DNA of 64,000 bases from Pseudobdellovibrionaceae bacterium (GTDB lineage Bacteria; Bdellovibrionota; Bdellovibrionia; Bdellovibrionales; UBA1609), in contig JAUVAX010000002.1 in assembly GCA_030591685.1 (NCBI GenBank), positions 62,001-126,000 of the forward strand. The letters run 5' to 3'. The notes beneath the pieces were generated by a model. The model ran no database searches, was not told the DNA's origin, and saw only the letters and a program-made list of their open reading frames with translations. A program made the translations under genes and the position numbers. Of the stretch, positions 4,902 to 21,077 are shown one piece after another (position 1 is the first letter of the stretch; the number at the start of each line of letters is the position of its first letter).

Positions 4902-6845
4902 TCACTTAATTTTTTTAAATATTTTTGTAACGGCATCAAGAGCCGTTAGGTCAAACAATAGAGTTTTCACCCCAATGCCGTCTTTCACCTTTGTATGAAA
5001 TCGTGAGCGTTCTCTTTTTGCTGGTATGTGTTTGGGGTCTAAAGAGATAGCTTGTGTAAAACACTTATAGGCTCTATCCCTATCACGAGACATTAACAGC
5101 AATAATCCCTTAGAGTAAAAGTAATTAGCACTATGGCGATCCTCTGTTGGTACTTCATTTAACAACCCTAAGCACTGAGTATGTAGCTTTTCTTTGCTTT
5201 CTTTAGTGTAACCTTTTTTTATTACGGCCCAGACATAGTAAATATTTATATCTGAACTCTTCTCTTTGGATTCAAAGATTTCCTTGAAAATCTTGTAGGA
5301 CTCCTTGTATCTACGGTTAAGCAGGGCCTTCTTGCCAGAGATAAAAAGGTCTTCGTTATGTATAATTAATTCGGATTGATTAACCTCTAGTTCGTGCAGG
5401 TATTTGCCACGGTTTTCGTCACTTTTAAGAGTCTGGTAGGCCTCAGTCATAAGTGTAAATATTTTTTCGTTAAGTTTAATAAGTTTAGAGGAGGCGTCGC
5501 CTGGAAGTTTATCAGGGTGTAGTATTTTTGCGAGTTCGTGGTAGGATCTTGAGACCTCTTTTGATGGAGTATTAGCATTAACGCCTAAGATCTCAAAATA
5601 GTTTTGAACTAGCATTTGTTTGTAAATAGTTTTATACCGTTTAAATTTATTGCGGTCTTTTGTATTGTCTACTTTTTCTTTTGAAAACTGAAAAACTCTT
5701 AAATTGAGTAAAAAGTAAAGGGCTCGGTGTAGTTCTTTTTCGTACTTGCTGTTTGCGTCCATGAGCTTTTGCAGAGCGGCACTAGAGTCGACGACTTTTA
5801 TGATTTTAGAAAACTTTTTTAAAACAGACTGATGTTCTAGATTTAAGAACTCACTGAAGTGAACCCCTTTTGAAAAACTTTTTTCAAAAAAGGGAGTAAA
5901 AAAAGTTTTCAACCAGGCCGGGGGTATTTTAGAAGAAATAATATCATTTAAGTAAGGTATAAACTGTTCTTTTGTGAGGTAAAACTCTTCAGGGGGAGTG
6001 TCTTCATCAGTGAAATTAATCTCGATAGAAGTGTTTGTTGTGCTTTTACTGAGTCTAATGGCCATTTGTTGTTTTTTTATGAGGCCAATGACGTGTGGAC
6101 TAATGGCATTGATGTCGACGAGGCGCTCACCTAATCTTTTATGAGAGTTATTTTTTAGTATTTGATCAATCTCCTCTCGGCCAGAGAAGCCCATTTCGAT
6201 AAGTAGTGACCCAAAGTATGAATGCTCATCTTTAAGGTTTATGTGAGTCATGTTCCCCTTATGAAAGACAACAGTAAATATTTCACCTTGCCCCATCATA
6301 ACATTTAAAGTTCCGGAGAGAGTTGAGTTTAAAATTAACGAATAAATCCAAGGTAAATCAAAACCGTGTGTAATTTTTGTGTCATTCAATATATTTACGA
6401 GTTCCTTGTTGCTTGGAGGGGGCTTGCTGAATAATTCATAAAGTAGAGAGGTATTATATGATTGGTAGGGTTTTAGGTTATCTTTAATAAGGTTGACGAT
6501 TTTTTGTAAATTTGCGGGTTTTTTAAAAAAACCCAAAGAGGGAACTTTTTGGAGAGCTTTTCTAACGAGCTGCTTATCTTTAAAAACCCCACTCATAAAT
6601 ACAAACACAGCCTCTCCGGCGCACTGAGCGTTTATTTTTTCAGCTAAATCAATACCGTTCATTGTTGGCAACAAGAGGTCTATAATAATAACTTGGAACT
6701 CACTAAATTTGATTTTTTCAAGGGCCTCATTGGGGTGATGAACAAGGGTTGGCTTCATATCAGCTCTTAGCAAAGTCTCGAAAAGTGCCTTACCTTGAGT
6801 TTTGTTATCTTCTACAATGAGAACACTAATATCTTCGCTGCTCAT
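4902..6845 (-). CDS. Response regulator with DUF4388, DnaJ J-domain and TPR region
   Basis: 647 residues in four parts. A receiver at 1-125 keeps the phosphorylation residues (E12/D13, D56, S85, K109-P110). A DUF4388/PATAN-like region covers about 155-270. A J-domain at about 413-485 has the HPD motif at 443-445, within NYFEILGVNA...LHPDK. A tetratricopeptide-like helical region follows at about 495-630. J-domains stimulate Hsp70/DnaK ATPase, so the plausible role is phosphorylation-controlled recruitment of DnaK or a co-chaperone function; the target is unknown. No DNA-binding domain is present. It converges with a pseudo-receiver gene one base away. Confidence 0.85.
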   Translation of the reverse strand: MSSEDISVLIVEDNKTQGKALFETLLRADMKPTLVHHPNEALEKIKFSEFQVIIIDLLLPTMNGIDLAEKINAQCAGEAVFVFMSGVFKDKQLVRKALQKVPSLGFFKKPANLQKIVNLIKDNLKPYQSYNTSLLYELFSKPPPSNKELVNILNDTKITHGFDLPWIYSLILNSTLSGTLNVMMGQGEIFTVVFHKGNMTHINLKDEHSYFGSLLIEMGFSGREEIDQILKNNSHKRLGERLVDINAISPHVIGLIKKQQMAIRLSKSTTNTSIEINFTDEDTPPEEFYLTKEQFIPYLNDIISSKIPPAWLKTFFTPFFEKSFSKGVHFSEFLNLEHQSVLKKFSKIIKVVDSSAALQKLMDANSKYEKELHRALYFLLNLRVFQFSKEKVDNTKDRNKFKRYKTIYKQMLVQNYFEILGVNANTPSKEVSRSYHELAKILHPDKLPGDASSKLIKLNEKIFTLMTEAYQTLKSDENRGKYLHELEVNQSELIIHNEDLFISGKKALLNRRYKESYKIFKEIFESKEKSSDINIYYVWAVIKKGYTKESKEKLHTQCLGLLNEVPTEDRHSANYFYSKGLLLLMSRDRDRAYKCFTQAISLDPKHIPAKRERSRFHTKVKDGIGVKTLLFDLTALDAVTKIFKKIK

Positions 6846-7467: not shown

Positions 7468-8601
7468 TTAAAATAAATACTTTCTATATGCGACAGATGA
7501 TATCAGTCCAAGCCCCGCCATGGTAGACAACAAGCTTGAGCCTCCGTAGGACAATAGGGGTAGGGGCACTCCAACAATGGGCAGTAACCCAATAACCATG
7601 CCTATGTTAACGGTCACGTGCCAAAAAAGATAAGAAAGAACACCGACTGTAATAAGCGCTCCAAATTTATCACGAGCCTGTCGCGCAATGCGAATCCCCA
7701 TAATATAAAGAATTAAAAACAGTATAAAAGTGGTGAGACTCCCGATAAAACCATGCTCCTCACTTAAGACTGAATAAATAAAATCAGTGTGCCTTTCTGG
7801 TAAAAATTCAAGTTGAGACTGAGTCCCTTTTCGAAAGCCCTTGCCAAGAAAGCGGCCACTTCCTACAGCAATTTTTGACTGAATGCTATTGTAGCCAGTC
7901 CCCCTTGGGTCTCTGCCGGGGTCAATAAATGTGAGGATTCTATTTTTTTGATATTTTTTAATGCCATAGTTCCAGACCACAGGAAGGGCAATCATAGTAA
8001 CAAGTGCCGCTGTCACCAGAAGTGATTTTTTGACTTTAACAAACAAGAGCATACTTAGTGAAATGATACCAATTAAAATAGCCGTTCCTAAATCGGGTTG
8101 TTTAACAGTAAGAATAAAAGGAATAAGGGTAATAACCCCAGGGACGAAGAGATCTTTAAAGCCTAGCCCCCCATATTTTACCCTTTTTGCTAGGTAACCA
8201 GCTAACACTAAAACGATGGCTAATTTTATGGTTTCTGAAGGCTGGTATCTAAAAAAACCTAAATCTAACCATCTTTGTGCCCCGTAATATTTTTTGCCCA
8301 CAAAGGGAACAAATAACATAGCGATCACATTTAAAAAATAAATGGGGTACGCAAGTCGAATAAAAAGCTTGTAGTCTATAAGTGTAACAACAAAATAAAT
8401 GGTCCACCCCACGCTGAGCCACATAATTTGTTGAGTAAAAAGGCGGATTAAGTGGTCAGAGGTGGTCACTCCATGGGTCGCACTATAAAGGTTAATAAGT
8501 CCAATAAGGTTTAAAACAAAAATGACCAAAGCAAAATTAACATCAAACCTTTTAAAAAAAGTTTTCTCTTGGACCTGCATGCCTGTGCTCGAAATTTTCA
8601 T
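7468..8601 (-). CDS. rodA: Rod-shape-determining protein RodA (SEDS glycosyltransferase)
   Basis: 377 residues with about ten hydrophobic helices, typical of SEDS proteins. RodA polymerises lipid II into glycan strands during elongation, with PBP2 as transpeptidase partner. Family features include RYQPSE, QPDLGTA, GTGYNSIQSKIAVGSG and, near the C terminus, PLPLLSYGGSS. It is the last gene of the mreC-mreD-mrdA-rodA operon, 7 bp after mrdA. Confidence 0.94.
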   Translation of the reverse strand: MKISSTGMQVQEKTFFKRFDVNFALVIFVLNLIGLINLYSATHGVTTSDHLIRLFTQQIMWLSVGWTIYFVVTLIDYKLFIRLAYPIYFLNVIAMLFVPFVGKKYYGAQRWLDLGFFRYQPSETIKLAIVLVLAGYLAKRVKYGGLGFKDLFVPGVITLIPFILTVKQPDLGTAILIGIISLSMLLFVKVKKSLLVTAALVTMIALPVVWNYGIKKYQKNRILTFIDPGRDPRGTGYNSIQSKIAVGSGRFLGKGFRKGTQSQLEFLPERHTDFIYSVLSEEHGFIGSLTTFILFLILYIMGIRIARQARDKFGALITVGVLSYLFWHVTVNIGMVIGLLPIVGVPLPLLSYGGSSLLSTMAGLGLISSVAYRKYLF

Positions 8602-8608
8602 GACTCCC

Positions 8609-10573
8609 TCACTGTGTGGTCACTTTTTTAATAGTTTTTTTTGCTTTCTTTTTAAGTAGTTCTGGGTGGTATTTTTTAAAATAAGCCTTCATGACATCTC
8701 GAACGACTGGTGCCCCTCCAGAGGACCCATGACAAGCATGTTCGGCAAACACGATAACGGTGATTTTGGGTTTATCAACGGGCGCAAAGGCTCCAAACCA
8801 GCCATGATGTCGTTTTTTAAAGGGCCTTTCAGAGCATTTACCATAAATTTCCTTTGCGGTGTACGCTTGAACCTGTACGGTGCCGGTCTTTCCGGCCATT
8901 TCTAACTTGCCAGGTAACTTATACCATCGTGCCGTGCCGTGATCGCCATTAGAGACCCTGCGCATGCCTTCTTTTACAATTTTAAAGTTCTTTTTTGAGA
9001 TAAAAATGTCATTACTCGGTTCAGAGGCATCTCTGACTAAAGAGGGTTTGAACTCTTTTATGACTTCACTATCTTGATTAATAATTTTTTTTACAAGAAA
9101 GGGCTTATACACCAGGCCCTCTTGACCAATGGCACTGTAGGCAACGGCCATTTGTAAAGGGGTGGTGAGTATGAACCCCTGCCCAATAGCACTTGAGAGG
9201 TTTTCACCGGGCTGCCACACCTCTCCGTATCGTTGCATCTTCCATTCTTTTGTGGGCATAAGGCCTGTTCGTTCATCGGCAAGGTTAATATTTGTTCGGC
9301 TACCGATACCTAGTAACTTACTGTATTTAGAAATATTATCAATGCCGAGTTCTTTACCCATTTTATAAAAAAACACATTACTTGATCTCTCAAGGGCCTC
9401 TAAAACATTTATTTTTCCGTAACCGTAACGAGTGTGGTCATGATAAGGCCGACCTTTATATTTAAAAACACCAGGGGAATGAATAAGCGTACTTGGTGAA
9501 ATGATTTTTTCTTGAAGTGCTGCAAGAGCGACAAAGGGTTTAAATGTAGACCCTGGCGAGGCGTGATCTTGTATGACTTTGTTTCTTAAAGGCTTGTTAG
9601 GGTCGTTTTTGATCTGGTTGTAGAGCTGTGTAGAAATACCTGTACTAAAAACATTGGGGTCATACGAAGGGGTGCTCACCCAAGCTAAAATTTCACCATT
9701 AGGTTTCATTGCGATAAGAGCGCCGATTCGCGGGCCAATTTTATCGTCACGATTCATGGCTAAAAAGGCGGCCTCGTGGATATCTTTGTCGATGGTTAAG
9801 ACTAAGTGGTTTCCGGTGCGAGCTTGTTTTTGTTTAAGCCCTAAAAAGCTGGCCGAAGAGGGGTCCTGCCCTCGGCCCCGCCCTCGAGCATCCACCTCGT
9901 TGAGTTTGATGCCATTGTACCCACGAATGGTGGTTTCCCAAACATCCTCAATGCCACTTTTACCAATAATATCACCTTGTTCAAACTGAAAGTCAGGAAA
10001 CTTTTTTTTGTAAGAGACGAGCTGTTTTTTAGAGATTTCACCCACATACCCAAATAATTGAGCCGCTGAGTGCTTCATCGAATAGGACCTCACATTTGTA
10101 GGCCTAATACTTAGTCCTGGATGGTGCAGGGTGAGCAGCTTTACTCTAGAAACATCACTGATTGATAAGTTCTTTTTAATGGTAACCGGCCTAAAGAGGC
10201 CGGTTTGGCGCTTGCTTTTTTTAACAAGCTGTAAGATTTCATGTTTTTTTATATTTAAAACCTTACTCAGTGCGAGAGCCATGCTTTCTAACTGAGTCGC
10301 GTATTGGGGGGTAATAGTAGCCTCAAAACCAGGGAGGTTTTCTACAAGAACTTGTTCATTTCGGTCTAAAATAAGGCCTCGTGGGGCTACTATTTTGGTT
10401 TCTTTAACACGGTTTCTGTCGGAGTAGGCTTTTAACTCATCACCTTTTATTATTTGCAAAAACCAAAGACGCCCAAACACTATTAGGGCTGTAATGGTTA
10501 CGGATATGTATAAGAGCTTATATCGGGATTCAAAGTCTTTCGCATTTTGCTCAGGGTTGGTGAGGGTTTTCAT
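8609..10573 (-). CDS. mrdA: Penicillin-binding protein 2 (peptidoglycan transpeptidase)
   Basis: 654 residues. One N-terminal membrane helix (about 22-41), a dimerisation/pedestal region, and a transpeptidase domain with the three active-site motifs S342-T-F-K345, S397-S-N399 and K562-T-G-T565. This is the class B PBP that cross-links side-wall peptidoglycan with RodA. Its ATG overlaps the mreD stop codon (TAATG), indicating translational coupling. The C terminus ends in a lysine-rich tail. Confidence 0.94.
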   Translation of the reverse strand: MKTLTNPEQNAKDFESRYKLLYISVTITALIVFGRLWFLQIIKGDELKAYSDRNRVKETKIVAPRGLILDRNEQVLVENLPGFEATITPQYATQLESMALALSKVLNIKKHEILQLVKKSKRQTGLFRPVTIKKNLSISDVSRVKLLTLHHPGLSIRPTNVRSYSMKHSAAQLFGYVGEISKKQLVSYKKKFPDFQFEQGDIIGKSGIEDVWETTIRGYNGIKLNEVDARGRGRGQDPSSASFLGLKQKQARTGNHLVLTIDKDIHEAAFLAMNRDDKIGPRIGALIAMKPNGEILAWVSTPSYDPNVFSTGISTQLYNQIKNDPNKPLRNKVIQDHASPGSTFKPFVALAALQEKIISPSTLIHSPGVFKYKGRPYHDHTRYGYGKINVLEALERSSNVFFYKMGKELGIDNISKYSKLLGIGSRTNINLADERTGLMPTKEWKMQRYGEVWQPGENLSSAIGQGFILTTPLQMAVAYSAIGQEGLVYKPFLVKKIINQDSEVIKEFKPSLVRDASEPSNDIFISKKNFKIVKEGMRRVSNGDHGTARWYKLPGKLEMAGKTGTVQVQAYTAKEIYGKCSERPFKKRHHGWFGAFAPVDKPKITVIVFAEHACHGSSGGAPVVRDVMKAYFKKYHPELLKKKAKKTIKKVTTQ

Positions 10574-11112
10574 TAAATCGGCCGTCCGGACTCAGTAGGG
10601 AGCTCTTTTTGGGTCAAGGCATCAAAAAACATAAATATTGTATATAAGGGGAGTGCCGCCAGTGTTGTAAGAAGGGTCGTGAAAATCCAATCAAAAAAAT
10701 GAATTTGTAACGTAAAATGAGCATTGTCTAAAACAAATGAAATCATATATCGAACAGGTACAAATAAAAAAGTTATAAGTCCAACGCTCATAGAGAAATA
10801 AATAGGCCCAGGTTGGTAAAATCTATTTTTAAAAGCAAGAACGACAATAACAAAAATGGTGTTTATAAACATAATCATACCGAGAGGGATAACAGTGAGT
10901 GGGGCCAGCAATAGCGAAAGGAGGTAACTCATAATAAGCCCCTCTTTTGGTGACCTATAAAGGTTCCAATAGGTCAAAACAGGGATCCAAAAATGAGGTG
11001 CTGGGATGTTCCCCGCATATTTTGGCCAAAGCGAAACTTGAAAACACGTAAGGGCTATGGCTGAGAGGTAAAATAAAAAGTAATTTTTAAAGGCACCCCT
11101 GTAGTCCCTCAC
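10573..11112 (-). CDS. mreD: Rod-shape-determining protein MreD
   Basis: 179 residues, almost entirely hydrophobic with five or six membrane helices. MreD is poorly conserved, so the assignment comes from size, topology and position between mreC and mrdA. The start overlaps the mreC stop by 4 bp and the stop overlaps the mrdA start. MreD belongs to the elongasome in the inner membrane. Confidence 0.85.
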   Translation of the reverse strand: MRDYRGAFKNYFLFYLSAIALTCFQVSLWPKYAGNIPAPHFWIPVLTYWNLYRSPKEGLIMSYLLSLLLAPLTVIPLGMIMFINTIFVIVVLAFKNRFYQPGPIYFSMSVGLITFLFVPVRYMISFVLDNAHFTLQIHFFDWIFTTLLTTLAALPLYTIFMFFDALTQKELPTESGRPI

Positions 11113-11999
11113 AAATCCCCCTTGGGGGAGGTCTTATTTTTTATTTCTTCAGGAGACCCTACGGGCTGGGGCTCGAAGTCTCTTAATTTTGCATCTAAAA
11201 TTACAAAAACTTCTTCTAGATTATTAGGGTTAATTACGGGGCTTAACTCGATGTCTTGTGTCGTGCCAAACCGACTCTTTTTAACGTTTGAGATGACCCC
11301 AACAGGAAACCCTTTGGGGAAAATATTATCAAGTCCACTAGTGATGACGAGGTCTCCGATGACGGCGTCATCCCCCCGCTTGAGATAGTTTAAATTTGCT
11401 TTGTCAGAATTATGTCCCTCAACAATGCCACGTGCCCGTGATCGCTGCACTAAGGCATCAATGGCCGCATAAGGGTCAGTGAGTAATATAATTTGAGAAG
11501 TAAACACCTCTGGAGACAGAACATACCCAACAGCCCCCGCGGCAGTAATCACGGCCATGTTCTTTTTTATCCCGTGACGTGTGCCAATGTTGATTGTCAC
11601 TGTGTTGTGTTCTGGAACGAGATCTTTACCGATGACCTTGCCAGCCATGAGTTTCATTTCAGATTTTTGCTTAAACTTTAGGAGGTTTCTGAGCCTTTCG
11701 TTCTCTAAGGTGAGCTCTGTCATTTCGATTAGTTTGGCTTTGAGCTTTGCGTTTTCTGTTGTAAGAGTCCTGTTTTTCTTGCTGATGCCGACGAGGTTTA
11801 AGTAAAGGGAAGTAGTGCCTTTAACGCCGGTGCTAAATGAATTGTAGCCGGTTAAAAAAAGACCTGTTGTAAAGCTAAAGGGTCTTAAGATCCATAGCGC
11901 TTCGCCACTTTTGCGCTCCATGTTGAACAGTAAAAAGGGTATAAATAGTGCAGTCATAAAGAGGGCCACTTTTTTGACATCAAAATTAAAGAAATTCAG
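11109..11999 (-). CDS. mreC: Rod-shape-determining protein MreC (probable CTG start)
   Basis: Membrane helix near the N terminus, coiled coil (the KNRTLTTENAKLKAKL region), then the beta-barrel-rich MreC periplasmic domain, with VTINIGTRHGI and GDLVITSGLDNIFPKGFPVGVI as hallmarks. MreC scaffolds the elongation complex. The first ordinary start is GTG at 11969, which has no Shine-Dalgarno. Extending in frame gives an N-terminal LNFFNFDVKKVALF, like other MreC N termini, and reaches a CTG at 11999 with AGGAG (12007-12011) 7 bp upstream. I chose that CTG; GTG 11969 or ATG 11957 are alternatives. No mreB is seen: the next upstream gene is divergent. Confidence 0.82.
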   Translation of the reverse strand: MNFFNFDVKKVALFMTALFIPFLLFNMERKSGEALWILRPFSFTTGLFLTGYNSFSTGVKGTTSLYLNLVGISKKNRTLTTENAKLKAKLIEMTELTLENERLRNLLKFKQKSEMKLMAGKVIGKDLVPEHNTVTINIGTRHGIKKNMAVITAAGAVGYVLSPEVFTSQIILLTDPYAAIDALVQRSRARGIVEGHNSDKANLNYLKRGDDAVIGDLVITSGLDNIFPKGFPVGVISNVKKSRFGTTQDIELSPVINPNNLEEVFVILDAKLRDFEPQPVGSPEEIKNKTSPKGDL

Positions 12000-12158: not shown

Positions 12159-13667
12159 ATGTCGCAAACAGTGAGTGCTTGGGATAAATTTTTAGTTCTA
12201 TGGAACCGTTTTTACAAAAAATTTAAAATATTACTAATTTTAGCTATCGCAACCTTTGCTTTTGCAATTATGGGGATGCTACAGGGAGGCAGTAGTTTGT
12301 CTCAAGGCGGCGGCGCTGCTGCAGTAGTTAACGGTGAGGTAATCTCTGTTTCTGAATTTCGTTCTACATACAGTCGAATGGAACAAGAAATGGGTGGTTT
12401 TTTGCAAAAAATAGAAAACCAAGACTACCGCCGGCAGCTTACGATGAACCTTAAAAAGCAGGCCTTGGACCGATTAGTGTCTACAGAGTTGCTTGTGCAA
12501 ATGGCAAGTCATCAGGGCATCTATGCCTCTGACAAAGAGGTTTTAAGCTACATAGTGACAATCCCCTGGTTGCAGCGCGAGGGCTCGTTTAGTCATGAGG
12601 TTTACGAAGGTTTTTTAAAATCCAATCGAATGAGTGCCGGTGATTTTGAGAGTCGAGTTCGGAGGCAAACTATTATAACAAAAACACAAGGGCTGTTTGA
12701 CAAGTCTTTACAAGATACAAGTGTTGAAACCGAAATGCTCGCAACCCTCATGGGCACAAAAGCTGAAATTGAGTTTATTAAGTTTATTTCATCAGACTTA
12801 AAAGTTAAGGTCTCTCCGGCTGAAACTCAAGGGTATTTAAAGAGCCATTCTGTCGAAATCGATAAAAAATACAAAGAGAACCTTTCTAAGTACACCACTC
12901 CCGAGCAGGTGCGTGCTCGACACATATTAGTAAAATTCAATCAGCAAAAAAAGAAGAGCCAAGTGGCCGCCAAGGTTAAAATACAAAAAGCCATAGAGAG
13001 GCTCAAGTCTGAGAGTTTTGCGGTCGTAGCCAAAGATTTAAGTGAAGACCCTGGGTCTGCGAGTAAGGGTGGAGACCTCGGCTTTTTTAAAAGAGGCCAA
13101 ATGGTAAAAGCTTTTGAAGAAGTGGCTTTTAGTTTAGAAAAAGGCAAGGTGAGCTCTATTGTTGAGTCTGACTTTGGATACCACATTATTAAAGTTGAAG
13201 ATAAAAAAGACAAGTACGTTAAGCCTCTCAAAGAAGTAGAGCTATTGGTGGCGTCTGATTTATTAAGAGCCTCCCGGCTTAAAGGAGTCGAAGAGCAGTT
13301 GGGCGTTGTCATCGCCTCAGGCAAAAAGGCACAAATATCAAAGGCCTTGAAGTTGGCGGGTTTGAAGTGGGAGACCACTGGTGAGTTCACCCTTTCTCAA
13401 GATCAGATCCCAAAGCTTGGTGATGACGAGAGGTTAATTGCTGCAGCTTTAAAGTTAAAAAGTAAGAATACTTTTAGTAAAATTATAAAAAGCCGTGGGA
13501 AGAGTTATATATTGAGGCTAAAAAAACTAAAGTTTGCCAAAATTTCTGAGGCTTCTAAAAGTACCTTGCCCTCTAAGCAGGGGCAGGTGGCTTTAAATGA
13601 TTGGTTAGTGGCCGAGAGAAAACTAGCTAAAATTAAAGAAAACACAGGGCTCATTCGGGGTCGGTAG
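12159..13667 (+). CDS. ppiD: Membrane-anchored peptidylprolyl isomerase, SurA/PpiD type
   Basis: 502 residues. One N-terminal membrane helix (about 23-42), a SurA_N-like chaperone region (about 55-200), and one parvulin domain (about 246-347) with ARHILVKF, DLSEDPGSASKGGDLGFF and FGYHIIKVE. Membrane anchor plus one parvulin domain fits PpiD, a periplasmic folding factor acting near the Sec translocon. The ATG follows GGAGG. It is transcribed divergently from mreC. PpiD or an anchored SurA-like protein cannot be fully separated by reading. Confidence 0.82.
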   Translation: MSQTVSAWDKFLVLWNRFYKKFKILLILAIATFAFAIMGMLQGGSSLSQGGGAAAVVNGEVISVSEFRSTYSRMEQEMGGFLQKIENQDYRRQLTMNLKKQALDRLVSTELLVQMASHQGIYASDKEVLSYIVTIPWLQREGSFSHEVYEGFLKSNRMSAGDFESRVRRQTIITKTQGLFDKSLQDTSVETEMLATLMGTKAEIEFIKFISSDLKVKVSPAETQGYLKSHSVEIDKKYKENLSKYTTPEQVRARHILVKFNQQKKKSQVAAKVKIQKAIERLKSESFAVVAKDLSEDPGSASKGGDLGFFKRGQMVKAFEEVAFSLEKGKVSSIVESDFGYHIIKVEDKKDKYVKPLKEVELLVASDLLRASRLKGVEEQLGVVIASGKKAQISKALKLAGLKWETTGEFTLSQDQIPKLGDDERLIAAALKLKSKNTFSKIIKSRGKSYILRLKKLKFAKISEASKSTLPSKQGQVALNDWLVAERKLAKIKENTGLIRGR

Positions 13668-13803
13668 TTTTATTTAAATCAAAGTTTTTATGAAAAAATC
13701 TCATTTTAAGACATCAGGGGGGTGGCTGTTTAGCCCCTGTTTTCAAGAGTGTTCTAATTTGTAACTGTTTAAAATCTTTTAAAAAAAACAGCTTTAGCTT
13801 TCT

Positions 13804-13815
13804 GGACCTAGGTCC
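13804..13815. promoter_or_regulatory. 12-bp palindrome upstream of the protease-PilZ gene
   Basis: GGACCTAGGTCC is a perfect dyad ending 12 bp before the ATG of the protease gene, where the ribosome would bind. It is a candidate operator or a translation-blocking hairpin. No other Shine-Dalgarno is obvious for this gene. Confidence 0.4.
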
Positions 13816-13827
13816 GAAAAGCTATGT

Positions 13828-15663
13828 ATGCTAAGACCCTTAACTTTTATAGTGGCCGTAATTTTATTTGCCGTTTCGTCGCAAGCTCGTGAGTTTGTGA
13901 GCGGCGAACTTATTGTAAAATTAAAAGCCAACTCTAGTGAAAGTCAGTCGTATAAGTTTTTGGGTAAGGCTCAATTACAAAAAAACATGAAATTAAAGCG
14001 TTCATGGAAGCGCATGAAAATGTATCACTTTAACATTAGAAAGGGTCAAAGCGTTGATGAGGCCATTGCCGATTTGCAAAATGACCCTGATGTCGCCTAT
14101 GCAGAGCCAAATTTTATACTTAGCAAATCAGCCAGTGAAGTCCAGAACACTCTTTCAGCAGATGTGGTGCAGTCCATGGCTGCGGCGGGTGGGCTTTACT
14201 CTACAGGTGCAGATATTGGTATTGATCAGGTGATCCCCAATTTAACCCCATCTGGTAATAAACCCATAGTGGCTATTATAGATACGGGTGTTGATATAAC
14301 ACACTCTGTATTTACTCAAAGTAACTCTATATGGGTGAACGCGGGTGAAGTCCCAGGTAATGGTATTGACGATGATGGTAATGGATACATAGATGATGTT
14401 AATGGCTGGAACTTTATTAATAACTCTGGCGTTATGTTAGATGACGATGATCACGGAACACATGTTGCGGGAACCGTTTTAAGCGTAGGGTTGGATATTT
14501 TTCAGGGCACTGTTTCTGAGTCGAGTGTTAAAATTATGCCTCTAAAGTTTTTAGACTCTAACGGGCTTGGAACAACGGCGGATGCCATTGCGGCCATTCA
14601 TTATGCTGTTGATAACGGTGCTTCCGTATTAAATAACTCTTGGGGGGGGGATAGTTACAGCCTTGCACTGCATGAGGCCGTAACTTACACCTACACAAAA
14701 GGGGCTGTTTTTGTGGCCGCAGCTGGTAACTTGGCCGGTAATAACGATTATGCCCCTATATACCCAGCCAGTTATGATGTGCCTAATATTATAGCGGTGG
14801 CAGCGACGACTGACTCTGATAATTTAGCTTCTTTTTCAAACTTTGGTTATAATACCGTGAGCGTTGGTAGCCCGGGGACTGTGATATTAAGTACTATACC
14901 TGGTGGGAACTTTCTTAGAATGTCTGGTACAAGTATGGCCTCGCCGATTGTTTCTGGTATTGCGGGTATTATTAAAGCTCAATCACCGACAATGTTAGGC
15001 TACCAAATCAAGACAATAGTGGAGGACTCCTCAGAGCCTGTGATACCCCTGCAAGGCAAGGTGAGTTCAGAGTCAAGAGTGAACGCCTTTTCGGCTTTAA
15101 CAATGTCGGGGGCGGTCACTGTGTCCTCTTATCAGCCGACTTACTCTTTAGGGGGGCGAAGCTTGGCCTCAGAAGAGGGCGCTGCCGGCTGCGGAGTCGT
15201 GTCAAAATTTGTGGGTGACAAACTCGGTGGGTCTGGCGGCAACGGGTCCTCTGGCGGCTTAGGGTTTCAGTTATTAACCCTACTTATATTAATAGGCCCG
15301 CTTGTTTATATAACATATATGAGAACTCAAAACAGCACAGAACAAAGACGTAAGCATGAGAGGTTTTCTGTTGAGAGTGATGTTAAAATCAAAATTGGTA
15401 ATAAGGAGCTTGTTGGTAGTGTGTCGTCAATATCACTTGGAGGAGTTCAGATTAATACTGATGCCCTGTTAGAAAACGGGGGCATAGTGAAAATGTCTAT
15501 ATCTACCCCTGATGGTAAAGAGCAAATCCAAGTGGCCGGTAAAGTGGTATGGAGCCAAGAAAAAGAATCTTATGGGCTGCAGTTTTCTGAGCCGAACTCT
15601 AAAGCGCTCAATAAAATTTCAAATTGGGTTTCAGGTCTAAAAAAGTCGGCGGCTCAAACTTAG
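13828..15663 (+). CDS. Subtilisin-like (S8) protease with C-terminal membrane helix and PilZ domain
   Basis: 611 residues. Signal peptide 1-20 (cleavage near SSQA), inhibitor-like propeptide 22-98, S8 catalytic domain about 125-430 with D152 (IDTGVD), H209 (DHGTHVAGT), N301 and S369 (GTSMASP). Then a Gly/Ser-rich linker with Cys455, a membrane helix at about 480-498 followed by Arg499, and a PilZ-like domain (505-605): R508xxxR512 and S534-I-S-L-G-G539 match the c-di-GMP-binding RxxxR and (D/N)xSxxG motifs, except Ser for Asp/Asn. The topology puts the protease outside the inner membrane and the PilZ domain in the cytoplasm. The combination is unusual; the substrate is unknown. Confidence 0.88.
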   Translation: MLRPLTFIVAVILFAVSSQAREFVSGELIVKLKANSSESQSYKFLGKAQLQKNMKLKRSWKRMKMYHFNIRKGQSVDEAIADLQNDPDVAYAEPNFILSKSASEVQNTLSADVVQSMAAAGGLYSTGADIGIDQVIPNLTPSGNKPIVAIIDTGVDITHSVFTQSNSIWVNAGEVPGNGIDDDGNGYIDDVNGWNFINNSGVMLDDDDHGTHVAGTVLSVGLDIFQGTVSESSVKIMPLKFLDSNGLGTTADAIAAIHYAVDNGASVLNNSWGGDSYSLALHEAVTYTYTKGAVFVAAAGNLAGNNDYAPIYPASYDVPNIIAVAATTDSDNLASFSNFGYNTVSVGSPGTVILSTIPGGNFLRMSGTSMASPIVSGIAGIIKAQSPTMLGYQIKTIVEDSSEPVIPLQGKVSSESRVNAFSALTMSGAVTVSSYQPTYSLGGRSLASEEGAAGCGVVSKFVGDKLGGSGGNGSSGGLGFQLLTLLILIGPLVYITYMRTQNSTEQRRKHERFSVESDVKIKIGNKELVGSVSSISLGGVQINTDALLENGGIVKMSISTPDGKEQIQVAGKVVWSQEKESYGLQFSEPNSKALNKISNWVSGLKKSAAQT

Positions 15664-15862: not shown

Positions 15863-18208
15863 ATGTTGTTGAAACGACTCTTGGCCGTTTTTATATCTCT
15901 ACACTTTTTTTTAAATGCCTTCACCACCCATGCTTGGGCAAGGTCGAGGACGCGGTATAACGAATACGAAGTCCGATTATCCTACCCTGATCAAGTTTTT
16001 CAGTCTGAATATGAAAAACTACGCACTCACGCCAACCAATTTATTGACCAACTCACCCCCTCTCAAAAAACCACTTTTATAAGCTCATTAAAAAACACCC
16101 CTTATCACTTAAATATATATAAAGAAGTTTCTTCAGAAAACCTATTGTCTACAGGCAAAGAGGTTCTTGGGAGGGTGTTGTTTGTGGAGCATGAGGGCTC
16201 ACTAATTAGGCATTACATGCTCTCTTCAAACGATAGGCTAGTGATTTCTGTTAACAAACAGCTACTTAAAGATGCCGATATGGACTTTTTAGAAAGACAC
16301 CTTAAAGAGGTTTATAGTAAGTCTACAATAGCTCGGGAGGTTTCAATTACTTGGAACGGCTTTATACACTCTCAAGATGTTTATACTAAAAGCCATAGTT
16401 TAGCGGCCGAGGACGTTGATTTAATGGCCAAAGCCACTGTAATGAGTTTGTCATATAATAAGAGAGTTCATGAAATGAACGAAAGCACTTTTGATGCTTT
16501 TATTAATGGCTCTATAGAGGCAGAAATTGAAAGGGTCAATGGGCCTAACAGGAGCATTAGCCCTGAAACTTTGGGTTTAATTTTACCACTATATAATTTA
16601 GCGATTGAAAAGCTAGAGGACTTTTACCTCACCGAAGCCTATGAGTATGTTAAGGGGCGGTCTGCACCTAACCAGATGGGTTTAGAGCAAACAGCTGAGC
16701 TTATGCACGAGGCCCGAGAGGCAGCTCAAGAGAGTTTCTTAAAGGGTCTTCAGGAGACAGGTAATATAGAGTTTCACGATATAGAGCTTGGGAAAGTGGT
16801 GCTTACAACTATCGATGGGGAGCTTGTGTATAAAATCCGACCCAACGGAACTGAAAAGATCTTTTTATGGGCCCCAAAGGGTTTAATTTCTGCTGATTCA
16901 ACGCATTTGAGGCAATATATATCAAGGCAGTTTATTGATGCTGGGACTGATAGGTCCGACGGAGAGCGCGGCCGGGACGTTGTACTTATGTGGGCTGATG
17001 AACTCGGTCAAGGGCCAGATATTAAAACTGAGAAAACAACAAAATCAATACCTAAAGTCACAAATTCAAGTGTTCAATTTAATTACCATCAGCGCCCTCA
17101 AGCTTGGACGGCAGAGTATTTTAAGCACTATTGGCGAGCCACTTATAAGCCTACGAGTGCTTCAGATAAAAAATTAGGTATTTACTGCGCCGTTTTGCAG
17201 GGCCTCGTCATGGCCGGGGTCAATGTGATGAAGGTTTCACTCGGGTATGCTGAGGCCATTAACCCATGGACTATTGGTGTGATTATGGTGTTCGGCGGGG
17301 TTATAGGAGCTAACTCAAGTACATATGTAAATTGGAAGTACCGTAAGGGCAAAAAAACAGATTCAGAATTTAAGAACAAAGCCATTCAAACAGCCAAAGG
17401 GGCCACTATAAGTGTGATGTACTCCGTGTCAGTAGGGATTGTTGATAACTCACTTCATAGTTTATATCACATCGCTTACAAGGCTTATGATATAGTTATG
17501 AACTCTTATGGTAAAACTGAATTTGAGCAGTGGGCTGTTATTAAACGCGAAAAACGCGCCGATTTAAAGAGCGTTGGGCTCCCTTATATTGGTTTAAAAA
17601 AACAAAAATTTGTAAAACTAATGAACTTCGATACTGGTAAAAAAATTCTCGTCAATACATCAGAGGCTGAAGAGCTAGTTAAGTCAGAACAGGCTGAGTT
17701 TTTAGAGGCGGACAGTGAGAGAAGGGTTCGAAACAGGTACTCTATTGGCCTAAAATGGATCGATGTACCAGAAGGCAAGGTGAATTTTCAAATTAAAACC
17801 CAAAACGCTATTATAGCAGTAAGGTCAGTGTCTTTAATGATGCAGGTGTGGTGGGTGTGGGCCTCAATACCACTTGTAAAGTACTTAACGTTAAAGTGGG
17901 CTGAAAAAAACCACCCAGATATGGCCGAGAAACTTGAGCTCAGGCAAAAGTGGGATAATTTTATTTTTAACCCCAATCCGAAAAGATTGGTCTCTAATTT
18001 GTACAGAGTGACGATTTTAAAAGCCATGAATACTTACAAAGAAAAACAAATACAATCAGATTTTGTCAGGTCAGTTAACTCATGGAGCAATAAAGAGGGG
18101 CCACAAAAAATGACACCGGCACATAGGCCAGAGCAAAAACCTAAACGCAAGCCGGATTCAATTTTAAAAGAAAATTTATCTTGTCAGGGTTTGTTTGCCG
18201 CCGCTTAG
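15863..18208 (+). CDS. Large secreted/membrane protein of unknown function
   Basis: 781 residues, no family recognised. Signal peptide-like N terminus (1-26, ending THAWA), a mostly helical soluble region to about 430, then hydrophobic segments near 438-463, 466-488, 510-530 and 650-676. The last ~100 residues are basic and probably cytoplasmic. The start is one of two close ATGs; 15863 is in frame and GAAAGG lies 11 bp upstream. It follows the protease-PilZ gene by 199 bp on the same strand, so it might be functionally linked. The end is followed by a possible terminator. Confidence 0.75.
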   Translation: MLLKRLLAVFISLHFFLNAFTTHAWARSRTRYNEYEVRLSYPDQVFQSEYEKLRTHANQFIDQLTPSQKTTFISSLKNTPYHLNIYKEVSSENLLSTGKEVLGRVLFVEHEGSLIRHYMLSSNDRLVISVNKQLLKDADMDFLERHLKEVYSKSTIAREVSITWNGFIHSQDVYTKSHSLAAEDVDLMAKATVMSLSYNKRVHEMNESTFDAFINGSIEAEIERVNGPNRSISPETLGLILPLYNLAIEKLEDFYLTEAYEYVKGRSAPNQMGLEQTAELMHEAREAAQESFLKGLQETGNIEFHDIELGKVVLTTIDGELVYKIRPNGTEKIFLWAPKGLISADSTHLRQYISRQFIDAGTDRSDGERGRDVVLMWADELGQGPDIKTEKTTKSIPKVTNSSVQFNYHQRPQAWTAEYFKHYWRATYKPTSASDKKLGIYCAVLQGLVMAGVNVMKVSLGYAEAINPWTIGVIMVFGGVIGANSSTYVNWKYRKGKKTDSEFKNKAIQTAKGATISVMYSVSVGIVDNSLHSLYHIAYKAYDIVMNSYGKTEFEQWAVIKREKRADLKSVGLPYIGLKKQKFVKLMNFDTGKKILVNTSEAEELVKSEQAEFLEADSERRVRNRYSIGLKWIDVPEGKVNFQIKTQNAIIAVRSVSLMMQVWWVWASIPLVKYLTLKWAEKNHPDMAEKLELRQKWDNFIFNPNPKRLVSNLYRVTILKAMNTYKEKQIQSDFVRSVNSWSNKEGPQKMTPAHRPEQKPKRKPDSILKENLSCQGLFAAA

Positions 18209-18312: not shown

Positions 18313-18335
18313 AAAAAAGGCCTCTAATAGAGGCC
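18313..18335 (-). terminator. Terminator overlapping the last stop codon of the small-gene operon
   Basis: Stem GGCCTCT (18319-18325) and AGAGGCC (18329-18335), followed on the minus strand by six Ts. The TAG stop of the 18324-18671 gene lies inside the stem. Confidence 0.8.
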
Positions 18336-18671
18336 CCATGAAAGAGTAAGTTCTTTTTGCTCTCGCCATTTTCGGTGGCGTAAATTTCTTTTTTTGTGTT
18401 TTTCAATTTGTATAATTATTTTTTTTTGGGCCTTTTGAATGGCCGTCAACAAACAATTATTTGTAGACTTAGTCACCGCTGCACTTGCGAGCCCATTGAC
18501 CATGATCCGAACACTGTAGAGACCTCGCTGAGGCTCCGGGTGAATCACTACAAATACGCGGTGGGACTCTTCATTATGCAGGTGAGACTTTATATTGCAG
18601 ATGCTTTTATTGATTTCTTTTTTTAGACGAACAGGGTTGTCAACCCCGTTAATTGTGATTTGATCGTTCAT
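18324..18671 (-). CDS. HPF/YfiA-like (ribosome hibernation fold) small protein
   Basis: 115 residues. The order of elements matches hibernation promoting factor: strand ITINGV, helix LKKEINKSICNIKSHL, strands VFVVIHPEP, YSVRIMVNG and AAVTKS, then helix TAIQKAQKKIIIQIEKHK and a basic tail. HPF proteins bind the 30S decoding region and idle ribosomes. Similarity is at the pattern level, so the fold is inferred, and the long basic tail is unlike standard short HPF. GGAG precedes the ATG. Last gene of a three-gene operon whose first gene looks related. Confidence 0.6.
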   Translation of the reverse strand: MNDQITINGVDNPVRLKKEINKSICNIKSHLHNEESHRVFVVIHPEPQRGLYSVRIMVNGLASAAVTKSTNNCLLTAIQKAQKKIIIQIEKHKKRNLRHRKWREQKELTLSWGLY

Positions 18672-18694: not shown

Positions 18695-19045
18695 TTAATA
18701 ATACTTTTTTAGTTCATTAGATTCATAATCGACGCTCTCGTAGTAGGATTCGAAGGGGAGGGTGGACTCTCTATCATCCTCATCACAGGTGTAGTGATCA
18801 ATTTGTATCACCTTTCGGCCGTCAATATCATCGACTAAATATCCAAAGACATCGATGAGGGACCAGGTGAGGTGCCCTAGGTACCTCGTGGCATCTGTTG
18901 TTAGTAGGGTATACTCCTTTCCATCATTTGTGGTCAAAACGTGGTGAGACTCTAACTGACCATTTGATTGGTAAAAGGGGACAAGCACCCCTTTTATTTT
19001 CATGTAAACATGTGAATCTTTTTTTAATTTTTTTGATGTGTTCAT
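18695..19045 (-). CDS. Small acidic protein of unknown function
   Basis: 116 residues. After a basic start it is rich in beta strands (HVYMKIKGVLVPFY, EYTLLTTDATRYLG, GRKVIQIDHY) with an acidic C terminus (DEDDREST, ESVDYESNE). The strand pattern is like small OB-fold domains, but no family is recognised. GGAGG precedes the ATG. It sits between two HPF-like genes, 23 bp upstream of the next one, so a shared function is likely. Confidence 0.65.
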   Translation of the reverse strand: MNTSKKLKKDSHVYMKIKGVLVPFYQSNGQLESHHVLTTNDGKEYTLLTTDATRYLGHLTWSLIDVFGYLVDDIDGRKVIQIDHYTCDEDDRESTLPFESYYESVDYESNELKKYY

Positions 19046-19121: not shown

Positions 19122-19436
19122 TCACGAGATATCTTCTTTAACTTTTAAAGAAAACCTATGATCTCTCCAGGGCTGTAGTTGTTGCTTTATGTTTTTTGTG
19201 AGTGAACTAATGAGGCTCCTAATGTTCCGACCGTTCTCTTGGCATTTAAATACCCCACATGTTGATACAATTTTTACGTTGATTAAAAAAATATTATTTG
19301 GGTTTTTATTTAAATGAATCTTTATATAGGAGTTGCTTGGGGATATGTTCTGTAAATACTCAGCCGCTGAAACAACAGCGTCCTGAAATTGAGAAGATTT
19401 TTTGTCATAACTTAGGTCGCAATTTTTTAAAAACAT
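19122..19436 (-). CDS. Second HPF-like small protein, more degenerate
   Basis: 104 residues. Helix QFQDAVVSAAEYLQNI, strands YIKIHLNKN, IFLINVKIVS and GVFKCQE, then helix IRSLISSLTKNIKQQLQ and HRFSLKV: the same order as the HPF-like gene at 18324, suggesting paralogy. The start has GGAG in CGGAGCCGTCC-ATG. It is the first gene of the operon; 76 bp separate it from the next. Assignment to the hibernation fold is tentative. Confidence 0.5.
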   Translation of the reverse strand: MFLKNCDLSYDKKSSQFQDAVVSAAEYLQNISPSNSYIKIHLNKNPNNIFLINVKIVSTCGVFKCQENGRNIRSLISSLTKNIKQQLQPWRDHRFSLKVKEDIS

Positions 19437-20114: not shown

Positions 20115-21077
20115 ATGAATACTCAATGGGGTTTTACTATTAAATCAAACAGAGGTGCTTCACTGATACAGGTCATGATTGCCTCTGCCGTTGCGGGTAT
20201 TGTAAGTTTACTTATTGTCAGTGTGATGCAAAACCTTTTAAAGATGAACAAACAGATTAATGTAAAAACTAATGCTATAATGATTAAGCAATCCATTGTT
20301 TCAATACTCCAAAACTCCGAATCTTGGGAGCACACACTTGATGCAAACACTGTTAAAATGGGTTGTATAAAAAACGGTGTGTCGTGTGCGGCGTATGCTG
20401 ATTTAGATGAGGTAGATCCAGATAAAAGAGAGGGAGAGCTTTTTGTGCTTAAGGACTCTCATAACAACACAGTTAGAGGTTTTACAAGTAATGGTGTGCC
20501 CTGCACAGGTTTCGTAGACCCTACGGCGGGTGCTGACGGTCCCTTGCCCGGAGTAGATAGTTGCCCTTTTGGAGTTGTTTTAAAATTTCTTGCGGACTGC
20601 CCTGACGCTAGTAACTGTATTAAGCCCCTTGTAAAGATCTCAGGATATATTTATTATAACTCTCGTAAACAGAAATTCCCTTATAACCCTGAAAATAATA
20701 AAATTGACTTCATTAGGTCGGGGGATTCAGTGGCTTATATGTGTGCTCAGTTTGGTGGTACTTATAACAGTGCGGCTAAAACATGTGGCGGCGTAGGAAA
20801 CACTGTTGCTGTGGCACCTGTTGTGGCAGCTGGTAATCCGTGCCCTCTTGAGCATGCTTTCTCAGCTGGGAATTCTCCAATTACCATGGTTGATGACGGT
20901 ACGAGGGAGTTTGGAATACGAAGAGGCATAGGTCGTCGACTTGTGAAATGGTATTTGCAAGGTAACAATCTATGGTGTTCTGTAAATAAATCAAGACGTA
21001 AGTTTCACAAGTGTAATAATGGCGTATGGGACTGTGATACGGGAGCAAGCACCTGCTTGACTGTGACGTCGTGTTGA
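20115..21077 (+). CDS. Type IV pilin-like protein (pseudopilin) with Gln at position 5
   Basis: 320 residues. A short basic leader ends in RG before ASLIQVMIASAVAGI, the prepilin-peptidase pattern and first hydrophobic helix of type IV pilin-like proteins. Mature position 5 is Gln, not the usual Glu. After the helix: a conserved SWEHTL, a Cys-containing DxCPFG segment and late cysteines (CxLTVTSC). It shares these blocks with the next gene (a tandem paralogue) and more loosely with 44650-48594. Probably a minor pilin or pseudopilin; the pilus assembly genes are not in the window. Confidence 0.75.
   Translation: MNTQWGFTIKSNRGASLIQVMIASAVAGIVSLLIVSVMQNLLKMNKQINVKTNAIMIKQSIVSILQNSESWEHTLDANTVKMGCIKNGVSCAAYADLDEVDPDKREGELFVLKDSHNNTVRGFTSNGVPCTGFVDPTAGADGPLPGVDSCPFGVVLKFLADCPDASNCIKPLVKISGYIYYNSRKQKFPYNPENNKIDFIRSGDSVAYMCAQFGGTYNSAAKTCGGVGNTVAVAPVVAAGNPCPLEHAFSAGNSPITMVDDGTREFGIRRGIGRRLVKWYLQGNNLWCSVNKSRRKFHKCNNGVWDCDTGASTCLTVTSC

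What the first reader, a model, noticed from the sequence alone, without database searches (positions are those of the whole stretch)
13828..15663. Serine protease with a transmembrane helix and a cytoplasmic PilZ domain
One protein carries an intact S8 catalytic triad (D152, H209, S369) on a secreted N-terminal side, a single membrane helix, and a PilZ-like domain with R508xxxR512. PilZ domains bind c-di-GMP in the cytoplasm. If correct this is a protease whose activity or position could be set by c-di-GMP from across the membrane. The (D/N)xSxxG motif has Ser534 at the first position, so binding may be altered. I do not know of a described protease with this layout.
Basis: partly seen in the sequence, partly recalled or inferred. 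Interest (0 to 1): 0.75.

Follow-up and report, generated by a model that had tools for sequence, protein, structure and literature searches.

The report
Membrane-tethered protease with c-di-GMP-sensor domain
A class-wide conserved protein of Bdellovibrio-type bacteria joins, in one chain, a protein-cutting enzyme outside the inner membrane to a PilZ sensor domain of the kind that binds the signal c-di-GMP inside the cell; the layout was listed twice before in surveys, but its conservation, likely attack-phase promoter and gene neighbours had not been worked out in anything I could read.

Summary
ORF 13828-15663 (611 aa) encodes signal peptide, Fervidolysin-type prodomain, intact S8 protease, a Cys/Gly-rich linker, one membrane helix and a PilZ domain (Pfam 7.5e-19; all top structural matches are PilZ, mostly c-di-GMP complexes). 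It is not a chance fusion: 103 aligned proteins from all 11 families of the class (Bdellovibrionia) share the layout. D152/H209/S369, a lone periplasmic Cys455 and both PilZ arginines are invariant; the Asp/Asn of (D/N)xSxxG is Ser/Thr in 95 of 103. Outside the class, related proteases end after the Cys-helix tail, so PilZ was probably added once and lost a few times. The gene lies beside ppiD and mreCD-pbp2-rodA in most families, and many orthologues have a sigma28-type promoter matching the published attack-phase consensus. The HD100 orthologue is probably Bd2545, reported as down-regulated on leaving attack phase. Best reading: an attack-phase, inner-membrane-tethered periplasmic protease whose position or partners are set by a cyclic dinucleotide through PilZ. 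Ligand binding, activity and substrate are untested. A 2008 survey and a 2020 review already list the domain pair.

The parts
13793..13819 (+). sigma28 (FliA)-type promoter element TTTAG-N16-CCGAAA with inner GGACC; ends 8 bases before the ATG
   Evidence: Same element within about 200 bp upstream of 61 of 111 genes incl. the window (60 of 110 fetched orthologues at up to 3 mismatches, 1.8 expected); published HD100 attack-phase consensus TTAAG-N16-CCGATA (PMC3627812)
13828..15663 (+). S8 protease-TM-PilZ gene, 611 aa
13828..13887 (+). Sec-type signal peptide (about residues 1-20, ...SSQA|R)
   Evidence: read from the sequence; AF2 helix 2-15 with lower confidence; no dedicated signal-peptide program was run
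13894..14154 (+). inhibitory prodomain (residues 23-109), Fervidolysin_NPro-like
   Evidence: Pfam 6e-11 for 17-95; AF2 pLDDT above 90
14254..15033 (+). Peptidase_S8 domain (143-402); D152 at 14281-14283, H209 at 14452-14454, N301 at 14728-14730, S369 at 14932-14934
   Evidence: Pfam 5e-45; triad invariant 111/111; nearest structure deseasin MCP-01, Foldseek E 3.7e-31
15190..15192 (+). Cys455 of G-C-G-[L/V/M/T]-V, the only Cys of the window protein
   Evidence: invariant 111/111; one Cys in the protein; only ectodomain Cys in 69 of 103 orthologues
15202..15258 (+). Gly-rich, variable, disordered linker (459-477)
   Evidence: mean entropy 2.98 bits for 459-478; AF2 pLDDT about 50 in 452-476
15259..15330 (+). 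single membrane helix (478-501) with conserved Pro491
   Evidence: AF2 helix 478-501; P491 in 109/111
15343..15630 (+). PilZ domain (506-601); R508 at 15349-15351, R512 at 15361-15363, S-x-S-x-G-G motif 534-539 at 15427-15444
   Evidence: Pfam 7.5e-19; AF2 PilZ barrel, all 32 Foldseek hits at E <= 0.001 are PilZ domains or PilZ-bearing proteins; R508/R512 105/105
12159..13667 (+). PpiD/SurA-like membrane-anchored periplasmic prolyl isomerase, upstream neighbour conserved in most families
   Evidence: Pfam SurA_N_3 1e-31, Rotamase_3 2e-29; adjacent in 36 of 59 loci outside family f3, many of them with only 1.5 kb of flank
7468..11969 (-). rodA - PBP2 (mrdA) - mreD - mreC operon, divergent from ppiD-protease
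   Evidence: Pfam FTSW_RODA 2e-98, Transpeptidase 4e-62, MreD 1.6e-5, MreC 5.5e-41; mreC found beside the protease in 15 loci of 7 families

Best explanation
An inner-membrane-tethered periplasmic subtilase of the motile (attack-type) phase, read out by a cyclic dinucleotide. The chain is exported by Sec, anchored by one helix, folds with its prodomain, and keeps a PilZ domain in the cytoplasm. Cyclic dinucleotide (most likely c-di-GMP) binds the RxxxR arginines and the S/T-x-S-x-G-G loop. Because a disordered Gly-rich linker separates the protease from the helix, binding most likely changes where the protein sits and with whom (clustering, recruitment to polar or wall-synthesis complexes) rather than switching the active site by a rigid conformational signal. 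Likely substrates are envelope proteins in the cell's own periplasm. Shown by computation: anatomy, intact active-site residues, predicted PilZ fold, class-wide conservation, conserved neighbours, conserved promoter element. Inferred: ligand binding, topology, attack-phase expression, positional control, substrate class.
For: Domains and predicted folds. Triad and both PilZ arginines invariant; only six positions of the PilZ domain are strictly invariant in the 88-row alignment, and two of them are the ligand arginines. c-di-GMP synthases are present: 6 GGDEF and 10 PilZ in this genome, GGDEF in 142 of 144 class genomes. Positive-inside charge in 102/103. Disordered variable linker. A promoter element matching TTAAG-N16-CCGATA upstream of many orthologues. 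HD100 orthologue inferred to be Bd2545 from its position among PilZ genes; Bd2545 is reported as down-regulated on the shift from attack phase (PMC2797640). Neighbourhood with ppiD and mreCD-pbp2-rodA in seven families, including the other order f11, and in one family a place directly behind rodA on the same strand.
Against: No ligand-binding, activity or localisation data exist here. The D/N of the second PilZ motif is replaced in almost all members. Bdellovibrionaceae (f3) lack the ppiD/mre neighbourhood (DUF502 instead in 40 of 50), so that link is not universal. The Bd2545 identity rests on coordinates, and on my memory that HD100 is 3,782,950 bp, not on a named record. The window organism's life style is unknown. 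In the window the promoter ends 8 bases before the ATG, which would give almost no leader.
Confidence: 0.45

Rival explanations
1. Inside-out allosteric control: ligand binding to PilZ changes the helix or a Cys455-linked dimer and so turns the protease on or off across the membrane, as LapD does for LapG but within one chain.
For: Same logical wiring as LapD/LapG, where c-di-GMP controls periplasmic proteolysis (PMC3032553). Invariant Cys455 and Pro491 could serve a covalent dimer and a kinked helix.
Against: Residues 452-476 are disordered and the linker is the least conserved mature part, of variable length, a poor relay for a rigid signal. A Cys455-Cys455 link is only a possibility; 34 of 103 orthologues have further ectodomain Cys with which it could pair instead.
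Confidence: 0.2
2. Shedding or sorting: the Cys-Gly-helix-basic segment is a C-terminal sorting tail (like MYXO-CTERM or GlyGly-CTERM) that is cut or lipidated at Cys455; the protease is released or moved outward and PilZ gates or marks the uncut form.
For: Short paralogues (L049-L053) and proteases of another class (L142, L143, L147) end right after Cys-helix-basic residues, as sorting tails do. The tail seems older than the PilZ addition. Cys455 is invariant.
Against: No NCBIfam CTERM model matched the tails. In the whole genome only this protein carries the GCG[V/L/I][V/I]-plus-helix tail by a strict pattern search. The Cys lies a median 22 residues before the helix, further than I recall for MYXO-CTERM. 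No sortase search was run.
Confidence: 0.2
3. The PilZ domain no longer binds a nucleotide and serves only as a protein-interaction or localisation module.
For: The D/N of (D/N)xSxxG is replaced in nearly all members, and PilZ domains lacking the motifs can act without c-di-GMP (PMC12943098).
Against: Both RxxxR arginines are kept in 105/105, and S536, G538, G539 in at least 98 %; in that paper the arginines are the criterion for loss of binding. Structural neighbours are mostly c-di-GMP-bound PilZ domains.
Confidence: 0.1
4. The PilZ domain reads 3',3'-cGAMP, alone or besides c-di-GMP.
For: Ser/Thr replaces the base-contacting acid in 95/103; the same kind of change, Asp to Ser/Thr at a guanine contact, makes Hypr GGDEF enzymes accept ATP, and Bdellovibrio makes cGAMP (PMC9140294). 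This genome has a GGDEF (L137) with Ser at that enzyme position.
Against: An analogy between unrelated folds. Ser/Thr at this place also occurs in a few other PilZ domains of the class. No cGAMP-binding PilZ is known to me.
Confidence: 0.05

Closest known systems
Subt-PilZ protein NP_969350.1 of Bdellovibrio bacteriovorus (PMC2605481, Table 3, 2008)
   Same: Same domain pair; the only such protein in the surveyed genome, so almost certainly the direct orthologue.
   Different: Listed as one of many architectures, module of unknown function; no mention of the helix, Cys tail, class-wide conservation, promoter or neighbours in the passages I read.
LapD-LapG (c-di-GMP controlled periplasmic proteolysis; PMC3032553)
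   Same: Cytoplasmic c-di-GMP reading coupled to a protease in the periplasm.
   Different: LapD is a separate receptor with degenerate GGDEF-EAL, LapG a cysteine protease; here sensor (PilZ) and serine protease share one chain.
Deseasin MCP-01 / subtilases with Fervidolysin-type prodomain
   Same: Catalytic domain (closest solved structure) and prodomain type.
   Different: Secreted free enzymes; no membrane helix, no PilZ.
Membrane PilZ effectors Alg44 and BcsA
   Same: PilZ attached to a membrane protein acting on the far side of the inner membrane.
   Different: Output is polysaccharide secretion or synthesis, not proteolysis.
Proteases with Cys-helix tail and no PilZ in another class of the phylum (L142, L143, L147)
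   Same: Same S8 domain, Cys motif, Gly-rich linker, helix, basic end.
   Different: End after the helix; no PilZ.

Membership tests
Peptidase S8 (subtilase), PF00082 | Asp-His-Ser triad in the S8 fold above the curated score | tested here: met
   154 bits against cut-off 21.8; triad invariant; Foldseek 3.7e-31 to deseasin
Peptidase S8 (subtilase), PF00082 | Proteolytic activity | not testable with these tools
   needs expressed protein
PilZ domain, PF07238 | Six-strand barrel plus C-terminal helix; Pfam score above cut-off | tested here: met
   68 bits against 22.5; AF2 and Foldseek
PilZ domain, c-di-GMP-binding class | RxxxR before the first strand | tested here: met
   R508/R512 invariant 105/105
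PilZ domain, c-di-GMP-binding class | (D/N)xSxxG motif | tested here: not met
   first position Ser here, Thr/Ser in 95 of 103; Ser536 and Gly539 kept
PilZ domain, c-di-GMP-binding class | Binds c-di-GMP | not testable with these tools
   needs ITC, DRaCALA or similar
LapD/LapG system | GGDEF-EAL receptor plus LapG-type cysteine protease | tested here: not met
   S8 and PilZ only; functional analogy only
MYXO-CTERM / GlyGly-CTERM sorting-tail proteins | Match to a curated CTERM model at the C-terminus | tested here: not met
   no CTERM model matched, also not in PilZ-less paralogues
MYXO-CTERM / GlyGly-CTERM sorting-tail proteins | Cognate sortase in the genome | not tested
   no sortase search was run
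sigma28 (FliA) attack-phase regulon | TTAAG-N16-CCGATA promoter | tested here: met
   class consensus in 61 of 111 genes; window TTTAG-N16-CCGAAA is 4/5 and 5/6
sigma28 (FliA) attack-phase regulon | Transcription dependent on FliA | not testable with these tools
   no start-site or RNA data for this organism

The most novel reading that the evidence does not exclude
A single-chain transmembrane protease through which a cyclic dinucleotide inside the cell directly sets proteolysis outside the inner membrane, tuned by its Ser/Thr substitution to 3',3'-cGAMP or to both nucleotides, and used across a whole class to remodel the envelope around attack and growth switches.
Probability: 0.12. Interest if true: 0.88.

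Novelty: new variant of a known kind. Interest (0 to 1): 0.62.

Why it matters
Bdellovibrio has about 18 PilZ domains, but for few is the output known; here the output domain is in the same chain and is an enzyme with a readable active site. Control of periplasmic proteolysis by c-di-GMP is known through the two-protein LapD/LapG pair; a fused PilZ-subtilase would be a simpler, independently evolved solution. It is conserved across the class, could be deleted in laboratory strain HD100, and makes the question 'what does c-di-GMP change outside the inner membrane of a predator' directly testable.

Tried and rejected
Chance fusion or frameshift: rejected, layout kept in 103 proteins. General sorting tail in this genome: a strict GCG pattern found only this protein with a helix behind it; looser forms were not searched. 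Spread outside the class: 369 genomes of the phylum gave no full-length match outside the class among the listed matches, and a peptide-pattern scan of 84,980 species genomes gave only two Bdellovibrio MAGs at the top, but that scan is of low sensitivity, so rare fusions elsewhere are not excluded. Loss together with c-di-GMP synthesis: reduced genomes that lack the gene have fewer GGDEF genes, but genome size confounds this and no test was made. The gene downstream (15863-18208) is not conserved beside the protease and has no Pfam match. Promoter pattern elsewhere in this genome: 12 matches at up to 2 mismatches against 4 for the reversed pattern, genes behind them mixed, so regulon membership in this organism is not proven. 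The paper on the extended c-di-GMP network (doi 10.1128/JB.00422-15), which may hold binding data for this protein, is not in the library.

Full report
What is there. ORF 13828-15663 encodes 611 aa. Pfam finds a Fervidolysin-type prodomain (17-95), Peptidase_S8 (143-402, 5e-45) and PilZ (506-601, 7.5e-19), all above curated cut-offs. AlphaFold2 on 88 orthologues gives mean pLDDT 91: prodomain, protease and PilZ are each mostly above 90, the helix is 478-501, and residues 452-476 are around 50. Foldseek matches the whole model to deseasin MCP-01 and pro-subtilisins, and the PilZ domain folded alone (pLDDT 86) to Alg44, MapZ, MotI, VCA0042, YcgR and BcsA, mostly c-di-GMP complexes. By sequence alone the PDB match of the PilZ part is weak (best E 0.005).

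Conservation. A whole-genome search of the class gave matches at E <= 1e-60 in 129 of 144 genomes; some of these are PilZ-less paralogues or contig ends. I aligned 110 fetched proteins with the window: 102 plus the window carry the full layout. D152, H209, S369, N301 and Cys455 are invariant in 111; R508 and R512 in all 105 that reach them; Pro491 of the helix is in 109. Position 534 is Thr 55, Ser 40, Cys 5, Asp 2, Asn 1. The linker between Cys455 and the helix is the most variable part of the mature chain.

Origin. Related proteases in another class of the phylum end right after a Cys motif, Gly-rich linker, helix and basic residues, and so do a few short paralogues inside the class. In a quick tree of the protease part the class forms one group (SH-aLRT 97), with PilZ-less rows L051, L052 and L053 nested inside it; L049 and L050 sit near the base on long branches and are uncertain; the trait needs at least five changes. 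The simplest reading is that a tail-anchored protease gained PilZ once and lost it several times. No full-length match was listed in the rest of the phylum.

Neighbourhood. Upstream lie a PpiD/SurA-like isomerase and, divergently, mreC-mreD-PBP2-rodA. The isomerase is adjacent in 36 of 59 loci outside family f3 and mreC is nearby in 15 loci of seven families, including the other order f11; in f9 the protease follows rodA on the same strand, in f4 and f5 the block lies on the other side. In f3 a DUF502 gene is divergent instead in 40 of 50. Keeping company through rearrangement suggests a link with the envelope or elongation machinery, but gene order alone can also persist by descent.

Promoter. 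Upstream of many orthologues lies TTAA(G)-N16-CCGATAAG with an inner GACT: 43 of 110 at up to 2 mismatches against 0.2 expected, 60 at up to 3 against 1.8 (position frequencies). The pattern was drawn from these same sequences, so the counts are biased upward, though the background was counted with the same pattern. Position and spacing equal the published HD100 attack-phase consensus TTAAG-N16-CCGATA (PMC3627812). The window has TTTAG-N16-CCGAAA at 13793-13819, leaving almost no leader before the ATG at 13828.

Link to HD100. One genome (G004, 3,782,950 bp, which I recall as the HD100 length) has 18 PilZ matches; two lie at 2.431 and 2.455 Mb, the latter being this protein. Interpolating between the positions that would fit the PilZ genes Bd1482 and Bd3100 places them at Bd2524 and Bd2545. 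PMC2797640 reports both as down-regulated on leaving attack phase. This is an inference from coordinates.

Mechanism. c-di-GMP is very likely present (6 GGDEF genes). The kept arginines argue for a ligand. The review I read says that the aspartate, serine and glycine of DxSxxG bind the base and pentose (PMC7288161), so Ser/Thr at the first place may weaken or alter recognition. Control of position or partners is preferred over rigid allostery because of the disordered linker; this is a judgement, not a result.

Prior knowledge. The domain pair was tabulated in 2008 and named in passing in 2020. I found no functional study in the open library; subscription papers, including the 2015 c-di-GMP network paper, could not be read.

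Noticed in passing
L137 = G000:C73:59388-59861 (about 2.1 kb before the window start): GGDEF protein with Ser where PleD has Asp344 (DHLFGS), the signature of Hypr enzymes that make 3',3'-cGAMP.
   Followed up: partly
window 4902-6845, minus strand: Protein combining a response-regulator receiver and DnaJ, with weak DUF4388 and TPR matches, in one chain.
   Followed up: no
window 15863-18208: 781-aa protein with a signal-peptide-like start and several hydrophobic stretches, no Pfam match, not conserved beside the protease.
   Followed up: partly
window 18324-18671, 18695-19045 and 19122-19436, minus strand: Three small ORFs in a low-GC stretch (34 %); the first and third look to my eye like ribosome-hibernation-factor relatives; no search was run.
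   Followed up: no
window 20115-21077: N-terminus resembles a type IV prepilin (GASLIQVMIASAVAGIVSLLIVSVMQ).
   Followed up: no
L131, L199, L202, L204, L212: Other PilZ domains of the class with Ser/Thr at the D/N position, so the substitution is not unique to the protease family.
   Followed up: partly
L142, L143, L147: Subtilases of another class with a Cys-Gly-helix-basic C-terminal tail and no PilZ.
   Followed up: yes
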